Below, one piece after another: positions 4,680-47,331 of a stretch of 64,000 bases of DNA. The number at the start of each line of letters is the position of its first letter. Positions within the stretch are counted from its first letter, which is position 1. Under the pieces are notes generated by a model. It made no database searches. It was not told the origin of the DNA and saw only the letters and a program-made list of their open reading frames with translations. The stretch is from Chalciporus piperatus (taxonomy: Eukaryota; Basidiomycota; Agaricomycetes; Boletales; Boletaceae): positions 62,001 through 126,000 of the forward strand of contig JBBPTG010000027.1 of assembly GCA_038093975.1 (NCBI GenBank), given 5' to 3'. The position numbers and the translations under genes were made by a program.

Positions 4680-5114
4680 CGCTCGGAAGCCAACACCAAT
4701 ACCCGACGCGAGGATCAGATCAAGTCCAGGTCATTATTGTAAGAACATCCTCGATACATGCATATCCAATTAATAGAATACAGTTGTGACAGCATGAGTA
4801 GTGATACACTCGATCTAGATGGCCTCCCCGTCGTCGTCGGCCCGTCAAGGGCGCATACCACACCATACCCCGATCAAACAACCTATAGCCTACAACATAT
4901 CAAGATCACCACATACGATCGCTGAAAACCCAGCAGCCGGCCTCCCTCGTTTCAGCAGAACGGGACCTTGCAGTTTTCCAGCACACACCCGTCAGGTATG
5001 TCGATCCTGTGCCCTTCCTTCGCTGCAACTGGTGGCAAAGGGCAGGTGTTGGAATCAGAATTGGTGGTCGGCAAATTCCACTTACCAATTACAGTGCCCC
5101 GGAGTGTCACTTCT
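4680..5114 (-). pseudogene. Distal second copy of the UGPase 3' end (terminal exon and 3' flank)
   Basis: Read on the minus strand, this begins exactly at codons for EVTLRGTVI and continues through an intron with the same ends. The next exon reads EGHRIDIPDGCVLEN, and 3' flanking sequence follows. The same order, including intron and 3' flank (shared CATATCCA and AGATCAA blocks), occurs at about 6300-6770 at the end of the pyrophosphorylase gene. The two copies are clearly homologous but diverged. Downstream of VLEN the donor present in the other copy is lost and a TGA follows. Toward 5115 the homology stops and monooxygenase-like sequence begins. It lies directly beside the complex I gene, so it could be the original end of the locus. 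Confidence 0.75.
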
Positions 5115-6299: not shown

Positions 6300-6773
6300 T
6301 TTGGATTTCACCAACACTGGAAGGGGAGTAACCAAAACACCTGCCGTCGAGAACCAGATCAAAACTAGCTCATGAGCATCGTAACATCCCGATACGAGCA
6401 TATCCATCAATAGGAAACAGTGGGAGCAGTCCAGTCCATTTCGTTACATCCTCTCCGTCGACGCCCGACCGAGAGTACCACCGATCATAGATCCTGGAAA
6501 GCAGAGTCAGAGGGATGCATGAACAAGGGAGGATGCGATAAGCATACAATCATATCAAGATTCCCAGAGAGAAGCCCTGAAAATCCCGCAGTCAGCCTCG
6601 CAAAAATCGTCGGGAAACATGCACTTACGATTGTCCAGTACACATCCGTCAGGTATATGGATTCTCCGTCCTTCAATCGCTACGACTGGCGGCGAGTAGA
6701 AGAGTGTGAGAAGCAGGAACAGTGCGTTGGGAGACTCCACTTACCAATGACAGTGCCCCGGAGTGTCACTTCT
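6300..6773 (-). repeat. Proximal copy of the duplicated UGPase 3' end
   Basis: This holds the last two introns and exons plus 3' flank of the disrupted pyrophosphorylase gene, homologous to 4680-5114. Shared landmarks in the same order are EVTLRGTVI, a GTAAGTGGA-type donor, IPDGCVLDN/EN, and a CATATCCA motif in the 3' flank. Introns and untranslated sequence are included, so the copy was made at DNA level, not from mRNA. Confidence 0.75.
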
Positions 6774-8637: not shown

Positions 8638-9403
8638 GGTGGATGAATCGTTGATCCTGGCGTTCTTGCGGCTACCAAAACGTCGAAACCTGGCTGTGTT
8701 GAAGAAGAACATAGTCTAGAAGCACCTGAAGCTAGAAGACAGAGAGGAAGCGATGGGAAGCGAGAAGGGCCGCAACAACCACTTATCTGTGTTAATAGAC
8801 ACGCGTGTGCGGTGAGGTAGGAACGATTGCACGACAGTTGTAAAGGGCGTATCGAGGCAGGGATAGCAAGAGGCCAAGGGTACCGGGAAAGAGCAACAAA
8901 TGACCGTGCGTCTGAACTAGACACGTTGGTTCATCCTGGACCGTAGGACGGATATTCCAGCACGGTGTTAGATAGCGCACTGTATCTCGCCGATACCACG
9001 CTGACTCCAGAGGGGTAATTCACCGGGGTCGCTCTCATACGGCACCATGAGAGGCAGAGAATCTAAGATGGTCTGTTCGGATTGCGCAAGGGCTGTTAAC
9101 TGGTTCACGGAAGATTATCGTACATCAGAGAGTGACTGTGTGCTTGCCCCACTGGCTATCTAAGCTCAACTTCAAAACAAAGAACTCACTGACCACCGTC
9201 TATCCTTGCACCGAGCACATATTCAGACATTTTTAGCCGTCAGTAAGTAGTAGTAGTAGTCGCAAACTTAGTCGGTCGTCCAAAGGTCAGCCACATTTTC
9301 GGTTGTTTCCGGCTGAGTTTGAACTTGGCAAACCTTGATTCTGAGTGGTAATCATCGTAACCTTGGGCTCGGCTTCAAGACTCCCATCCTCAAGACTCGT
9401 CAA
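8638..9403. other. Divergent upstream region of UGPase relic and RPS8
   Basis: No gene is supported here. A short TAG triplet run lies at about 9250-9262. A possible acceptor (CACAG at about 8694) suggests the UGPase relic once had a further 5' exon. The RPS8 promoter should lie in the right half. Confidence 0.5.
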
Positions 9404-42742: not shown

Positions 42743-43010
42743 TTCTGTATCCCTCAGGCTCCACATTCGATCGACCTGGTGAAACATGTGTGAATGCAAT
42801 AGAAGATAACGGAAAGCAATTATCATCCCAATACAATACAGTAACGATGGATAATCTAGCAAGAAACGACAAGCTATCGGTGCATCTACCACTAACCATA
42901 CCATTATTTATCGCCGATCCTCATCCTTGCAGGGGACGCTGGTATCTCAGGCTGTGATTCGGTTATGTTCCCACTTCTATCGCGCGTTGGATAGTCCAGG
43001 GATCAGTTCA
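42743..43010 (-). pseudogene. Decayed distal copy of the nse4 last exon and 3' flank
   Basis: On the minus strand this matches the nse4 3' end at 45895-46142 through the last part of the final intron, the last exon and about 150 nt of 3' flank. The copy is dead as an exon. The acceptor CTATCTAG has become CTATCCAA, and small insertions and deletions break the frame (GAAGTGGG for GAAATATGG, CAGCCTGAGATACCAG for CAGATACCCCAG). The 3' flank is better preserved, for example the ATTGCATTCACACATGTTTC block. Homology ends abruptly near 43010. I infer this is the original end of nse4, displaced by the insertion to its right. Confidence 0.85.
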
Positions 43011-43119
43011 ACGAGTCCAGTGTATCATACTACCGATCCATCGGGGTTGAACAACTCGAGAACGCGTTTCGAGTGCGTTTCGTAACCCTGCGAAAATCAA
43101 CCTCCGCTATGCCTTCCGA

Positions 43120-43790
43120 TTCACATGAGTCTCGTGTACTCTCGCCAATGGGTCTCACTGTCGATGTTAACAATTTGGAGTCTTCGTAACTCCCCGGAGC
43201 CTCCATCAATCAACTTCCCAGGGTCCTTGCGCCCGTTCGGAGCCAAATACCTGTTGGTTCGCGCCCCTGGGCCCTCGGGCGGAGAGCTCAATCCATCAAA
43301 CCACGGAAGCAAAGATGAAATCGTGAGGTTCCTCTTACAAGTCGGCATTGTAAACGATCCACGTACGTCGTGACTTTTCACCTTTTGTCCTTCGTCAGTT
43401 TTGATATCGCATCGTTCACAGCGCGCCCCAGCTGCTAGTTAATGCAGACACAAACCCCTCCGACGAAGCCATTTCTCCGTTCAGGCCTGCACATCGTCAA
43501 AGGCGCAGCATGGCAGGGTAATGCAAACCTGAGCTTTCTCTTGTACTGGCCAGAGGAAACGAGCTGGGACGACGCGGCAGTGTCTTCCGTTTCGTTGCAA
43601 TCGCGTGACATCCATGAGGTTGGCTGATTCTCACCTCCTCCCCCATGCTCACAACGAGCTTACCGCCCGTCCCTACTAGGTACCTCGGGAAGATGTGTGA
43701 CCAGGTTGTCACCCTGATTTCACTAGAACACGCACAAATGATCGTTTGGAGCGATAACGGGGACCTGATCAGGACGGAGAGGACGTGAAG
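43120..43790 (+). pseudogene. Relic of a second inserted gene (unknown basidiomycete family)
   Basis: Three plus-strand pieces look like exons of one protein, separated by intron-sized gaps. The first includes SINFPGSLRPFGAKYLLVRA and DEIVRFLLQVGIVND. The second includes HIVKGAAWQGNANLSFLLYW followed by PEETSWDDAAVSS. The third includes YLGKMCDQVVTLISLEHAQM followed by IVWSD. Stops and frame changes prevent a full reading, no start is evident, and sequence to 44170 is non-coding or decayed. Composition is CpG-rich like the host. I do not know the family's function. It sits inside the segment bounded by the two nse4 ends. Confidence 0.5.
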
Positions 43791-44185
43791 GGTTCCAGAT
43801 AATCCCGTTCAACCTTTCTCTTGTGTCACATGGTCCTTGAGTGACACAGATTTGGAACTACAAGCTGTTTCCGGGAAGATAGTGGCCCCAGATCGAGAGG
43901 CAAGGTATCGTCAGATCAATCCCATACAACTCGTATTGTTCCTGTCATTGCGTTTCCATGGTAGTTGCTTTCTCTGACGAGTGATGTTCTTGCTGCACAG
44001 AGCCACAGATTGTTTCGGTATCAACGAAGCAATGGATGATGAGTCCCTCGAGATACTCCTGTACATAGTACCATTATCCTGGAGTTACTGTGAGTACACC
44101 CAATGCGTGTCCGAGTTCTCGGGGTCCGGTTGCCAGTGTATAGGAGGTTTTCAAGTTGGACAACTCAAGACATGCTCCTATGACA

Positions 44186-44192
44186 TATAAAT
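44186..44192 (+). promoter_or_regulatory. TATA box of the inserted nuclease-like gene
   Basis: TATAAAT lies 107 bp before the ATG at 44293. It is followed at 44197-44220 by a 7-bp inverted repeat (CCCCTCT ... AGAGGGG, 10-nt loop). The gene therefore seems to carry its own promoter. Confidence 0.55.
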
Positions 44193-44292
44193 CTGGCCCC
44201 TCTCAGCCACTTCAGAGGGGATTTAAAAAGCATCTTGACCCATAGGTATTTCCTATCACTTGGATTCATTCTTTCCTTACCATCTCAGAACA

Positions 44293-45546
44293 ATGTCTGT
44301 TGACGGTAATAATCAGACAACACTCAATGTTCTCCCCTCTCACAAGGAAGCCACAACCATTGACTCAGATCATTGCCTTGAAATTATCCAGGCTCTGAAA
44401 GGGGACTTTTTTGAGATCCAAGTGAGTGAATTCTGGAATGTAGTTTCAAGATCCAACCATAACCATCTTCACAGATTTTCAGTGATGTCACACCCAAAGA
44501 GTTTGAAGTTATCACATATGAACGTGAAGATCACATTTACCCCAAGTAAGTTTTCAACCTATCTCTCAATGATTCTAACCAAGCACTTCCCTGCTTCACA
44601 CAGACTCTTGTACAATCCCCAACTACTTCGACTGGTTGCAATGACTCCTCTTCCTACCCATCAACGTGCTATTGAGTGCTTCACTGACTGTGCTAAAGCT
44701 CTCGTAGCTCCCTACAAACACTCCCATCTTTCAGTGCTGGCCAGGCACAACTCCATGATTCATGGCAGACAGGAAGGTGATAGTGGTGTTATCCCAGACT
44801 TGCACCTTGACATTGAGAAAACCCACCCTGAGTATGAGCTTCCCTCCCCTTTCTGGGTCATGGAGTGTGGGTTCAGTCAAGGTGCTGCCGATATGAAGAG
44901 GCAGCTAGAGATGGCAGTTAAGAATGCCCCTGGCATAGATGCTGCTTTCATGATCTCTATCAATGACAATATTGATCATGATAGCCTCCCTCGAAGGGAT
45001 CTGGGTCATCCTCTTTTTCATGAATCCCTATCCTCAAAGAAGGACTTCACATCAGCTTTGTTCCGCAGTGAATCAACTCCAACTTTACAACCTGTTATTG
45101 TCAAAGGTGTAACCTGGGTTGACATCAAGTCAGTCACAATCTCTGTGTTCCTTCGCCAAGAGGATGGAACATTCAATTTCGATATTAATGGTCATGATCC
45201 ATTTACTGCATGTGGGGTAAGCATATTAGTATCTCAGGGTCTCTGGTATTTAAGATTCACTGACTATTTCCCTCAGACCTTATACCCTCACATGTCAGTT
45301 GACCACATCAAAACACTGTTAGATCAGGCTGCCAGACGGCTTCTTCAATGTCTTGCTGATAAGCTGGAAGAGCATAATGACAACGACCATATCACCATTC
45401 ATCGCCTTCGTAATGGAGCAGAGAGTGCCACTTTCCCACTTGATTGGGCCCTCTTCCTTGTTGTCATTCAACGCTCCTTGTACGAAACAGCCTTCTCTCG
45501 TTATACTTCATCCGCCCATGGGTTGAATGTCCCACATCCTAAGTGA
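44293..45546 (+). CDS. Putative PD-(D/E)XK (Uma2-like) nuclease of an inserted element
   Basis: Four exons (44293-44421, 44475-44545, 44604-45216, 45277-45546) give 360 residues; all splice sites are GT...AG. The frame also stays open without splicing, so exon use is not certain. The centre reads GVIPDLHLD, then 18 residues later PFWVMECGFSQ, then KRQLEMAV and DAAFMISIND. A PD followed by a strand with E-x-G-(F/Y)-S resembles the active-site layout of Uma2-type restriction-endonuclease-fold proteins. The usual Lys is not at the E-x-K position, so activity is a hypothesis. No Cys/His metal motif is seen. The DNA has only about 20 CpG in 1.25 kb, far fewer than the flanking genes, suggesting past cytosine methylation or foreign origin. 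It is convergent with nse4, 485 bp from the nse4 stop. Confidence 0.6.
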   Translation: MSVDGNNQTTLNVLPSHKEATTIDSDHCLEIIQALKGDFFEIQVSEFWNVVSRSNHNHLHRFSVMSHPKSLKLSHMNVKITFTPSKFSTYLSMILTKHFPASHRLLYNPQLLRLVAMTPLPTHQRAIECFTDCAKALVAPYKHSHLSVLARHNSMIHGRQEGDSGVIPDLHLDIEKTHPEYELPSPFWVMECGFSQGAADMKRQLEMAVKNAPGIDAAFMISINDNIDHDSLPRRDLGHPLFHESLSSKKDFTSALFRSESTPTLQPVIVKGVTWVDIKSVTISVFLRQEDGTFNFDINGHDPFTACGVSILVSQGLWYLRFTDYFPQTLYPHMSVDHIKTLLDQAARRLLQCLADKLEEHNDNDHITIHRLRNGAESATFPLDWALFLVVIQRSLYETAFSRYTSSAHGLNVPHPK

Positions 45547-45894
45547 AAGGTACCAGAGTTGGCTGAAGCTGGGCCTTCAGAAAAGCACCCTGCAGTGGAT
45601 TCTGAAGTGTGCAAAAGGCAGCGGTGGTCCAAATGATTGCAGTAGGTGTCACAATGAGTAATAAAACAAAAATCTTTAAAATATGTACACAATTGTATAT
45701 GACTCAGGAAAACAAACAAGATGATGTTGCTCCTCTGCAGAAACTCCCTGCCAGTGCTGCTCATGCGTTTGTCAACTGTTTCTACATGGAAAGGTGTACC
45801 CTAGAGGCTTCAAGTTGAACTGTCAATTGAGCATACACTTACCTACTTATGGGCCTTCTTATGAGATGATGTATTATCCATCTTTGTCCAAGGG

Positions 45895-46142
45895 TTCTGT
45901 AGCCTCCACATCCAATCAACCTGGTGAAACATGTGTGAATGCAATAGAAGATAACAGAAAGCAATTATCCCTCGCAATACAATACAGTAACAATGGATAA
46001 TCTAGCGAGAAACAAGAAGCTATCAGTGCACCTAACCATACCATTTATCGCCGATCCTCGTCCTTGCAGGGGGACGCTGGGGTATCTGTGATTCTGTTAT
46101 GTTCCATATTTCTATCGCGCGCTAGATAGCACAGGGATCAGT
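45895..46142 (-). repeat. Proximal, functional copy of the nse4 3' end
   Basis: This contains the end of the last nse4 intron (acceptor CTATCTAG), the last exon coding RAIEIWNITESQIPQ and the 3' flank. It is in direct orientation with 42743-43010. The exon is intact here and completes the Nse4 protein. Confidence 0.85.
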
Positions 46143-47331
46143 GTTCGTGAGACCGAGCAGCCAAAGGGGCTCAGCAAAACCAAGGCCTTACCTTCCACGT
46201 GGCCATGTCGAGTTCCATGACAATCTGTCGTCCGTGGACACCCGCGGCCCTGTCATCCATAGTCGGTTGTTCGCACCGCACTGCGAGACCGTCAGACAGA
46301 GTCGAGTATGGTAAGTCTTCCGCACTTACTAACGATCGGTTCACCTTCATCGTTAATTTCGAACGCGCATTCTCCGTCACGAATGACAAAGGAGAGATAG
46401 AACAAATTTTCCACCGACTGTGCAAAGTCGTTGGGGTTTACAATGAATTTGAAGACATTGATTGGACCAGTCTCTTCGAGAATGTCTCTGATCTGCGTGG
46501 TTGTTAGCGGGGCGAATGTGTGAAAATTCAATGTCGGACATACCTTCAAGACATTCTTTGTTGTCTCGTTGTCGGACCGTTTGATGTCGTCCTCCCTGAT
46601 TTGTTGGGGACGGCGTTCTTCTTCCTGGACTTTCTCTTGCTTCTGGCGCTTGATGGGAGCCCGTTTCTTTTGTTCTAATGACAGAGGGCCAAGCCTGGAC
46701 AAGTTGAGTCAACGACGAAGGCTCAAAGTGTGTGACAAGGCGTATACATGAAGCCGGTGACAGGGACTCTCCGGCTCTTTGCCAGGGATAGTCGACCTAT
46801 TTTATCCCAATCAAGGGCAGCGTCTTCAACCGCTTCCATATCTTCCTCTTCATCCTCGAAGCGTTGTCTGCCGCCCATATAACTGATGAGTTTCGTCACA
46901 AATTCATCCAAGTCAAACGCGGCAGAGCCGAGCTTCATGGCACGCGCTTTTTGAGCGCTGATACTCGAGACATTTCGAAGTACCGTCGAGTCGAGCGTCG
47001 CCTCTGTCGGGTTCTTGACTGCACACGATGGGCGCTTAATCGAACTGACAGGTGTGACGGCAGAGAGGTACGTACCTTTTAAGAACAGTTCGTCCGCTTC
47101 TGCGACCTGACCAGCGAGATCTTCCGCGTCGTGGTCCTGTGGTCTCATGTTTTCTGTGCCATGACACGTTCATCTTGCGTCTTTCAAAGGGGAAAACGAT
47201 GTCGTTGACTCACCTCCTGTCCTCTTCTCGAGAAGACGGTATTTCTTTCGGAGGTCGCGTTTCTCGGCAGCATCCTGGTCTGGGTCGTACGCAGGATTGT
47301 CAAATTTAACTCCGGCTTCAAAGGAGACCAT
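46032..47331 (-). CDS. NSE4: Nse4, kleisin subunit of the SMC5/6 complex
   Basis: The minus-strand protein starts MVSFEAGVKFDNPAYDPDQD and continues with RDLRKKYRLLEKRTGG and AEADELFLKG, the N-terminal kleisin helices. Then come AAFDLDEFVTKLISYMGG, DWDKIGRLSLAKSRRVPVTGF, LGPLSLEQKKR and IRDILEETGPINVFKFIVNP. The C-terminal winged helix follows with FAQSVENLFYLSFVIRDG, CEQP and GRQIVMELDMATWKRAIEIW. Length is about 340 residues in six or more exons, as in the family. Nse4 bridges the SMC5 and SMC6 heads in DNA repair and is essential in yeasts. The last exon was placed at acceptor CTATCTAG (about 46126) because it gives the conserved ATWKRAIE junction; the stop is TAG at 46032-46034. This last exon exists twice in the window; only this copy can be spliced and read. 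Confidence 0.9.

What the first reader, a model, noticed from the sequence alone, without database searches (positions are those of the whole stretch)
42743..46142. Selfish-nuclease-like insertion at the 3' end of nse4, with duplication of the gene's last exon
Seen: two direct copies of the nse4 terminal exon plus 3' flank (45895-46142 intact, 42743-43010 decayed) bracket about 2.9 kb that holds a self-contained gene with its own TATA box and a PD...ECGFSQ motif. Known: homing-type endonuclease genes in fungal mitochondria (the Allomyces atp6 case) can enter a gene and bring a replacement C-terminal part, leaving the resident end as a relic. Inference: the same strategy is used here in a nuclear essential gene. 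The nuclease would cut nse4 alleles lacking the insertion, repair would copy the element, and the carried 3' end keeps nse4 working and perhaps uncuttable through sequence divergence. Homology between the two ends stops in the last intron, so the insertion point is just upstream of the final exon.
Basis: partly seen in the sequence, partly recalled or inferred. Interest (0 to 1): 0.88.

Follow-up and report, generated by a model that had tools for sequence, protein, structure and literature searches.

The report
Nuclease-like gene lodged behind nse4
In a bolete mushroom genome, a gene with a restriction-nuclease-like fold sits just behind an essential chromosome-maintenance gene, between a working copy and a dead copy of that gene's last exon; this looks like the scar of an insertion by a mobile gene, but homing is not shown.

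Summary

New here: a CpG-poor tract (about 44150-46020) covers the gene and runs into the 3' flank of the working tail; the dead tail is not CpG-poor. A distant branch of the family sits beside truncated copies of another conserved gene, RPP1.

I favour a duplicative break-repair insertion of a dispersed nuclease-like gene, later hit by methylation-type decay (0.5); tail-carrying homing stays possible (0.2).

The parts
46192..47331 (-). nse4 exons 1-6 (47331-47214, 47153-47076, 47018-46748, 46694-46544, 46492-46330, 46280-46192)
   Evidence: hand model
46032..46121 (-). nse4 working last exon
45895..46142 (-). working copy of the duplicated tail (21 nt of intron, last exon, 3' flank)
42743..43010 (-). 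dead copy of the tail (acceptor lost, frameshift, early stop)
44293..45546 (+). 360-aa nuclease-like gene, exons 44293-44421, 44475-44545, 44604-45216, 45277-45546
44186..44241 (+). promoter-like 56 bp with TATA-like sequence, 53 of 56 identical to one place on contig C10
44150..46020 (.). CpG-poor tract (edges approximate): the nuclease-like gene, its 3' flank and the 3' flank of the working nse4 tail
43305..44061 (.). decayed piece of another repeated family (73-85% to copies on C234, C323, C3)
43047..43293 (.). decayed piece of a second repeat (71-78% to C60, C83, C155, plus 25 identical bases)

Best explanation
A gene of a dispersed Boletales family with a PD-(D/E)XK (DUF820/Uma2-like) fold was copied into a break at the 3' end of nse4. 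Repair of a wide, staggered or re-copied break doubled about 250 bp (end of last intron, last exon, 3' flank). The copy still joined to the gene body stayed in use; the distal copy decayed. The newcomer was then treated like a repeat: CpG loss spread over it and into the neighbouring 3' flank of nse4, while its reading frame stayed open. Pieces of other repeats landed later between it and the dead tail. Shown: the repeat, working and dead copies, the open gene, past constraint, the CpG-poor tract. Supported: nuclease-type fold. Inferred: break repair as the route, whether the enzyme made the break itself, methylation as the cause of CpG loss, the order of events.
For: Repeat anatomy. Fold: models of the window protein (exons 3-4) and of its Pisolithus relative give the same core order, and the same three PDB entries come first in both re-alignments (6okh, uncharacterised by its title; 1wdj, DUF820 per PMC1913061; 3ijm, restriction endonuclease-like by its title). 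Family dispersed: 15 matches at 8 places on 7 contigs. C98 and C250 share 2.05 kb at 94%, including the start of what reads as a hAT gene, so the gene can travel with flanking DNA. dN/dS 0.30 and 0.29 against C98 and C250. CpG o/e 0.28 (gene) and 0.13 (3' flank) against a window mean of 0.95, s.d. 0.19; C98/C250 have 0.81/0.97; other repeats in the fetched loci are also CpG-poor. In the tail's 3' flank 6 sites are CG in the dead and TG in the working copy, 1 the reverse. In the reading frame 11 CpGs are left at codon position 1 against 23 in C250, 7 against 41 at the other positions (Fisher p 0.019).
Against: No empty allele was seen, so a single insertion event is inferred. The nearest paralogues are only 64% identical in DNA, so no donor copy is visible. 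The CpG step inside the insert implies at least two events. A 250-bp duplication is long for simple fill-in. The CpG counts are small: 6 to 1 gives two-sided p 0.125, the last exon adds one site lost in the dead copy, and the direct comparison of codon positions with C250 gives p 0.064. Models are of low confidence (mean pLDDT 55.4 and 48.5), the K of the motif is missing, and a Glu after H86 kept in 5 of 6 aligned members is Gln in the window protein.
Confidence: 0.5

Rival explanations
1. Homing-type selfish nuclease that carries a replacement nse4 end: it cuts alleles without it, is copied in by repair, and its own last exon takes over.
For: Layout gene body - working tail - nuclease gene - dead native tail matches mitochondrial mORF cases. 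Nuclease-like fold. The CpG-poor tract joins the gene and the working tail's flank. A distant branch lies beside truncated copies of RPP1. Where the working exon reads IEI, the dead exon seems to have read IEV (inferred across a gap); V stands there in 5 of 7 Boletaceae and in 10 of all 16 relatives read (family membership recalled; one site only).
Against: Opposite orientation to nse4. The two close paralogues lie near what reads as an oxidase gene and a hAT gene, with no duplicated gene end in 10 kb. Outside CpG-type changes the 3' flanks differ at 11 of about 137 bases, 7 of these at the ragged edge or beside an indel, so no distant donor is needed. The 56-bp promoter piece differs from native C10 by CG-to-TG at 2 of 3 mismatches, so CpG decay need not come from a foreign genome.
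Confidence: 0.2
2. Tandem duplication of the nse4 tail came first by ordinary slippage or repair; the nuclease-like gene and the repeat debris were later dropped into the spare DNA between the copies.
For: The insert is a mosaic of at least three unrelated sources of different divergence. A direct repeat around an inserted stretch occurs elsewhere in the genome (51 bp on C111).
Against: No spacer of native origin was recognised between the copies; needs one more event.
Confidence: 0.2
3. Transposon of a known kind (hAT, Helitron) with the gene as passenger.
For: The C250 copy sits directly upstream of a gene with a hAT dimerisation domain, and the 2 kb shared with C98 includes about 168 bp of the first open frame of that gene region. 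One 17-nt inverted pair (94%) lies at L025 4133-4149 / 8699-8715, but its second arm falls inside the hAT gene.
Against: No inverted repeat of 12 nt or more at the edges of the window insert or of the shared segment, no short target duplication seen by eye at the junctions, no transposase recognised in the window insert.
Confidence: 0.1

Closest known systems
Mobile endonuclease ORFs (mORFs) with carried-in C-termini in fungal mitochondria: Allomyces atp6; Glomus atp6, atp9, cox2, nad3 (PMC3630166, passages read)
   Same: Gene end present twice, working copy joined to the gene, nuclease-type gene between it and a relic end
   Different: Nuclear gene with introns; nuclease gene on the opposite strand; different nuclease fold; foreign origin of the working end not shown; extra repeat debris in the insert
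DUF820/Uma2 (PF05685), PD-(D/E)XK superfamily (1wdj; PMC1913061, passages read)
   Same: Core topology, D then E on consecutive strands; E-x-G with K/R in the next helix, a variation that paper describes for other families
   Different: No significant match to any Pfam model; eukaryotic, intron-containing, extra N- and C-terminal parts
Nuclear inteins with homing endonucleases (VMA, PRP8; PMC1508164, listing and start of abstract only)
   Same: Homing-type selfish element in a conserved nuclear gene of fungi
   Different: Those are in-frame inteins removed by protein splicing; here the gene is separate and lies behind the host gene
Pisolithus P0001 and Suillus P0002 hypothetical proteins
   Same: Relatives over 82-85% of the query
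   Different: 26% identity; genomic context unknown

Membership tests
[quoted passage not shown]
   Two models, both of low confidence (mean pLDDT 55.4 and 48.5), same order of elements
PD-(D/E)XK nuclease superfamily | acidic residues of motifs II and III | tested here: met
   D132 and E154 invariant in 6 of 6 aligned members; D at the start of the second, E within the third core strand
PD-(D/E)XK nuclease superfamily | lysine of motif III | tested here: inconclusive
   E-C-G instead of E-X-K; K/R in the next helix could stand in, a migration described for other families in PMC1913061 (passages)
PD-(D/E)XK nuclease superfamily | DNA cleavage | not testable with these tools
   needs an assay
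Uma2/DUF820 (PF05685) | sequence match to the family model | tested here: not met
   Uma2 not among the matches of 6 members at E<=5; 0 matches in the host genome at E<=1, while 2 of 14 control genomes ring
Uma2/DUF820 (PF05685) | structural resemblance | tested here: inconclusive
tail-carrying homing element (mORF type) | working gene end plus dead relic end around the nuclease gene | tested here: met
tail-carrying homing element (mORF type) | nuclease gene within the host gene's transcript | tested here: not met
   gene on + strand, nse4 on - strand
tail-carrying homing element (mORF type) | working end foreign, relic end native | tested here: inconclusive
   only protein tails of relatives available
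tail-carrying homing element (mORF type) | LAGLIDADG or GIY-YIG nuclease as in the Glomus cases | tested here: not met
   no Pfam match at E<=1
tail-carrying homing element (mORF type) | empty alleles and cutting of them | not testable with these tools
   one nse4 match in the assembly; no strain data
cut-and-paste transposon | terminal inverted repeats at the edges | tested here: not met
   no pair of 12 nt or more at the edges; junctions read

The most novel reading that the evidence does not exclude
A nuclear family of selfish restriction-fold nucleases in boletes enters the ends of essential single-copy genes (nse4, and in a distant branch RPP1) and leaves part-copies of the host gene, the nuclear counterpart of mitochondrial tail-replacing mORFs; the host answers with CpG silencing while selection keeps the nuclease frame open.
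Probability: 0.2. Interest if true: 0.87.

Novelty: new variant of a known kind. Interest (0 to 1): 0.55.

Why it matters
As far as I recall, selfish nucleases in nuclear protein-coding genes are known mainly as inteins. If relatives' nse4 loci show filled and empty alleles, boletes would offer a natural, datable nuclear case of gene-end invasion in a DNA-repair complex gene. Even on the ordinary reading, this points to a eukaryotic family without a Pfam model, with a restriction-endonuclease-like fold, dispersed, once under constraint and marked by CpG decay.

Full report
What was checked. In a self-comparison of the 64-kb window 3 direct-repeat pairs reach E<=1e-5 and this is by far the strongest. 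A search of the assembly (35.5 Mb, 484 contigs) with the tail found these two places and no other.

The host gene. On the minus strand a hand-made seven-exon model gives a 319-aa protein with both Nse4 domains. The nearest database proteins are from boletes: Lanmaoa asiatica 89%, Butyriboletus roseoflavus 87%, Boletus edulis 86% (best 120 of 395 listed), so I take the host to be a bolete. I read 16 of the 120; 16 of 16 end in RAI[EDQ].[WF][NDE]I..S.IPQRP.....[IL]G[DG]KWYG. The copy at 46032-46121 reads such an end, in frame with the upstream exon. The copy at 42743-43010 has lost the acceptor AG, has a one-base deletion, small insertions and an early stop. Homology runs 21 nt into the last intron and about 137 bp past the stop codon.

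The insert. The 2.9 kb is a mosaic. 43047-43293 resembles a repeat on C60, C83 and C155 (71-78%, plus 25 identical bases); 43305-44061 resembles an internal piece of a repeat of about 5 kb on C234, C323 and twice on C3 (73-85%) and weakly C52 (70%). 44186-44241 is 53 of 56 identical to one place on C10; its 36-base core was found at just these two places in the assembly at up to 3 mismatches. Then follows the gene: four exons with consensus splice sites, 360 aa, on the strand opposite to nse4, so the two genes converge.

Constraint and CpG decay. dN/dS is 0.30 and 0.29 against C98 and C250 (dS about 1.3, so rough) and 0.65 between C98 and C250. The gene and its 3' flank have CpG o/e 0.28 and 0.13, against 0.95 (s.d. 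0.19) for 500-bp steps of the window; all 7 steps under 0.45 lie at 44001-46000. The C98 and C250 copies are not depleted (0.81, 0.97), nor are the dead tail (0.96), the C234-type piece (0.90) or the C60-type piece (1.17); the working tail as a whole has 0.75. Finer steps put the tract at about 44150 to 46000-46030, so it crosses from the insert into the 3' flank of the working nse4 tail and ends near the last exon. In that flank 6 sites are CG in the dead copy and TG in the working copy and 1 is the reverse; in the exon one more CG of the working copy is TG in the dead one (6 to 1 gives two-sided p 0.125). Other stretches here are CpG-poor too: 2.2% of 1632 overlapping 500-bp steps in the 172 kb of loci examined, which were chosen for repeats and family members, fall under 0.35, nearly all on C111 and C176. 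The C10-like piece differs by CG-to-TG at 2 of 3 mismatches. So the decay probably happened in this lineage and need not mark foreign DNA. Remaining CpGs in the reading frame sit at codon position 1 in 11 of 18 cases against 23 of 64 in C250 (direct comparison p 0.064); the retained-versus-lost tables give p 0.019 against C250 and 0.006 against C98. This fits selection on the protein while silent CpGs were lost; the sites are not strictly matched. The stop codon at 45544 lines up with an Arg codon of C250, and an in-frame tail continues after it with weak similarity (shuffle p 0.06): a possible truncation by the same decay.

Do relatives sit beside partial gene copies? C98 and C250 share 2.05 kb at 94%. 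The shared part on C98 starts 180 bp behind what reads as an oxidase gene; on C250 it lies next to a hAT gene (Dimer_Tnp_hAT 6.7e-11) (the oxidase name is by eye). In the 10-kb stretches of C98, C250 and C151 a self-comparison at E<=1e-4 found no repeat; C176 has several repeats whose gene content I did not examine. The distant members on C218 and C111 are different: they lie downstream of RPP1 (RNase P subunit p30, PF01876 1.1e-22), found only in this duplicated cluster, as 3 near-full matches to the 166-aa ORF plus 3 pieces. The pieces aligned share one truncation point followed by the same non-RPP1 sequence, and on C218 the segment that holds the nuclease-like gene starts about 40 bp further on. 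This is an association with a second conserved gene, but there the nuclease-like gene is not between a working and a dead end, and the cluster is so rearranged that chance cannot be excluded. I count 2 of 6 independent locations (C27, C98, C250, C151, C176, the RPP1 cluster) with a recognised partial copy of a conserved gene, one of them being the location under study.

Reading. The mitochondrial precedents in PMC3630166 (passages) have gene body, inserted C-terminus, mORF and native relic in one line; in the four Glomus genes the mORF is in the transcript and the relic is closer to the sister species. Here the line-up is alike but the nuclease gene is reversed, and the decisive test, which tail is native, needs relatives' DNA that was not available. 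Outside CpG-type changes the 3' flanks differ at 11 of about 137 bases, 7 of these at the ragged edge or beside an indel, so a distant donor is not needed. I therefore prefer a duplicative break-repair insertion (0.5) over tail-carrying homing (0.2), duplication first (0.2) and a transposon passenger (0.1).

Novelty. In the searches that ran (listings with abstract starts, and passages of PMC3630166, PMC1913061, PMC12543289 and PMC12730594) I saw no description of this family or of a nuclear counterpart of tail-replacing mORFs. That is a limited search.

Noticed in passing
45544-45546: The gene's TGA lines up with an Arg codon of C250; a basic tail of about 30 aa continues in frame, perhaps cut off by CpG decay.
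   Followed up: partly
L027, L028, L029, L047, L050 (contigs C218 and C111): RPP1 occurs in 3 near-full copies and 3 truncated pieces; the truncated pieces aligned share one junction, all in one rearranged cluster.
   Followed up: partly
L024:4327-6345 and L025:4328-6376: 2.05-kb segment at 94% on two contigs carries the nuclease-like gene and the start of what reads as a hAT gene; no terminal repeats seen.
   Followed up: partly
L029:220-270 and L029:3855-3905 (contig C111): A 3.6-kb stretch lies between 51-bp direct repeats (96%); another repeat-flanked stretch in this genome.
   Followed up: no
L029:6484-7319 and L029:7556-8391 (contig C111): 836-bp inverted repeat at 99%, strongly CpG-poor.
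   Followed up: no
4887-5114 and 6541-6773: Second-strongest direct repeat of the window, 72%.
   Followed up: no
L024 (C98): The C98 copy reads QD instead of PD at the motif, so it may be losing activity.
   Followed up: no
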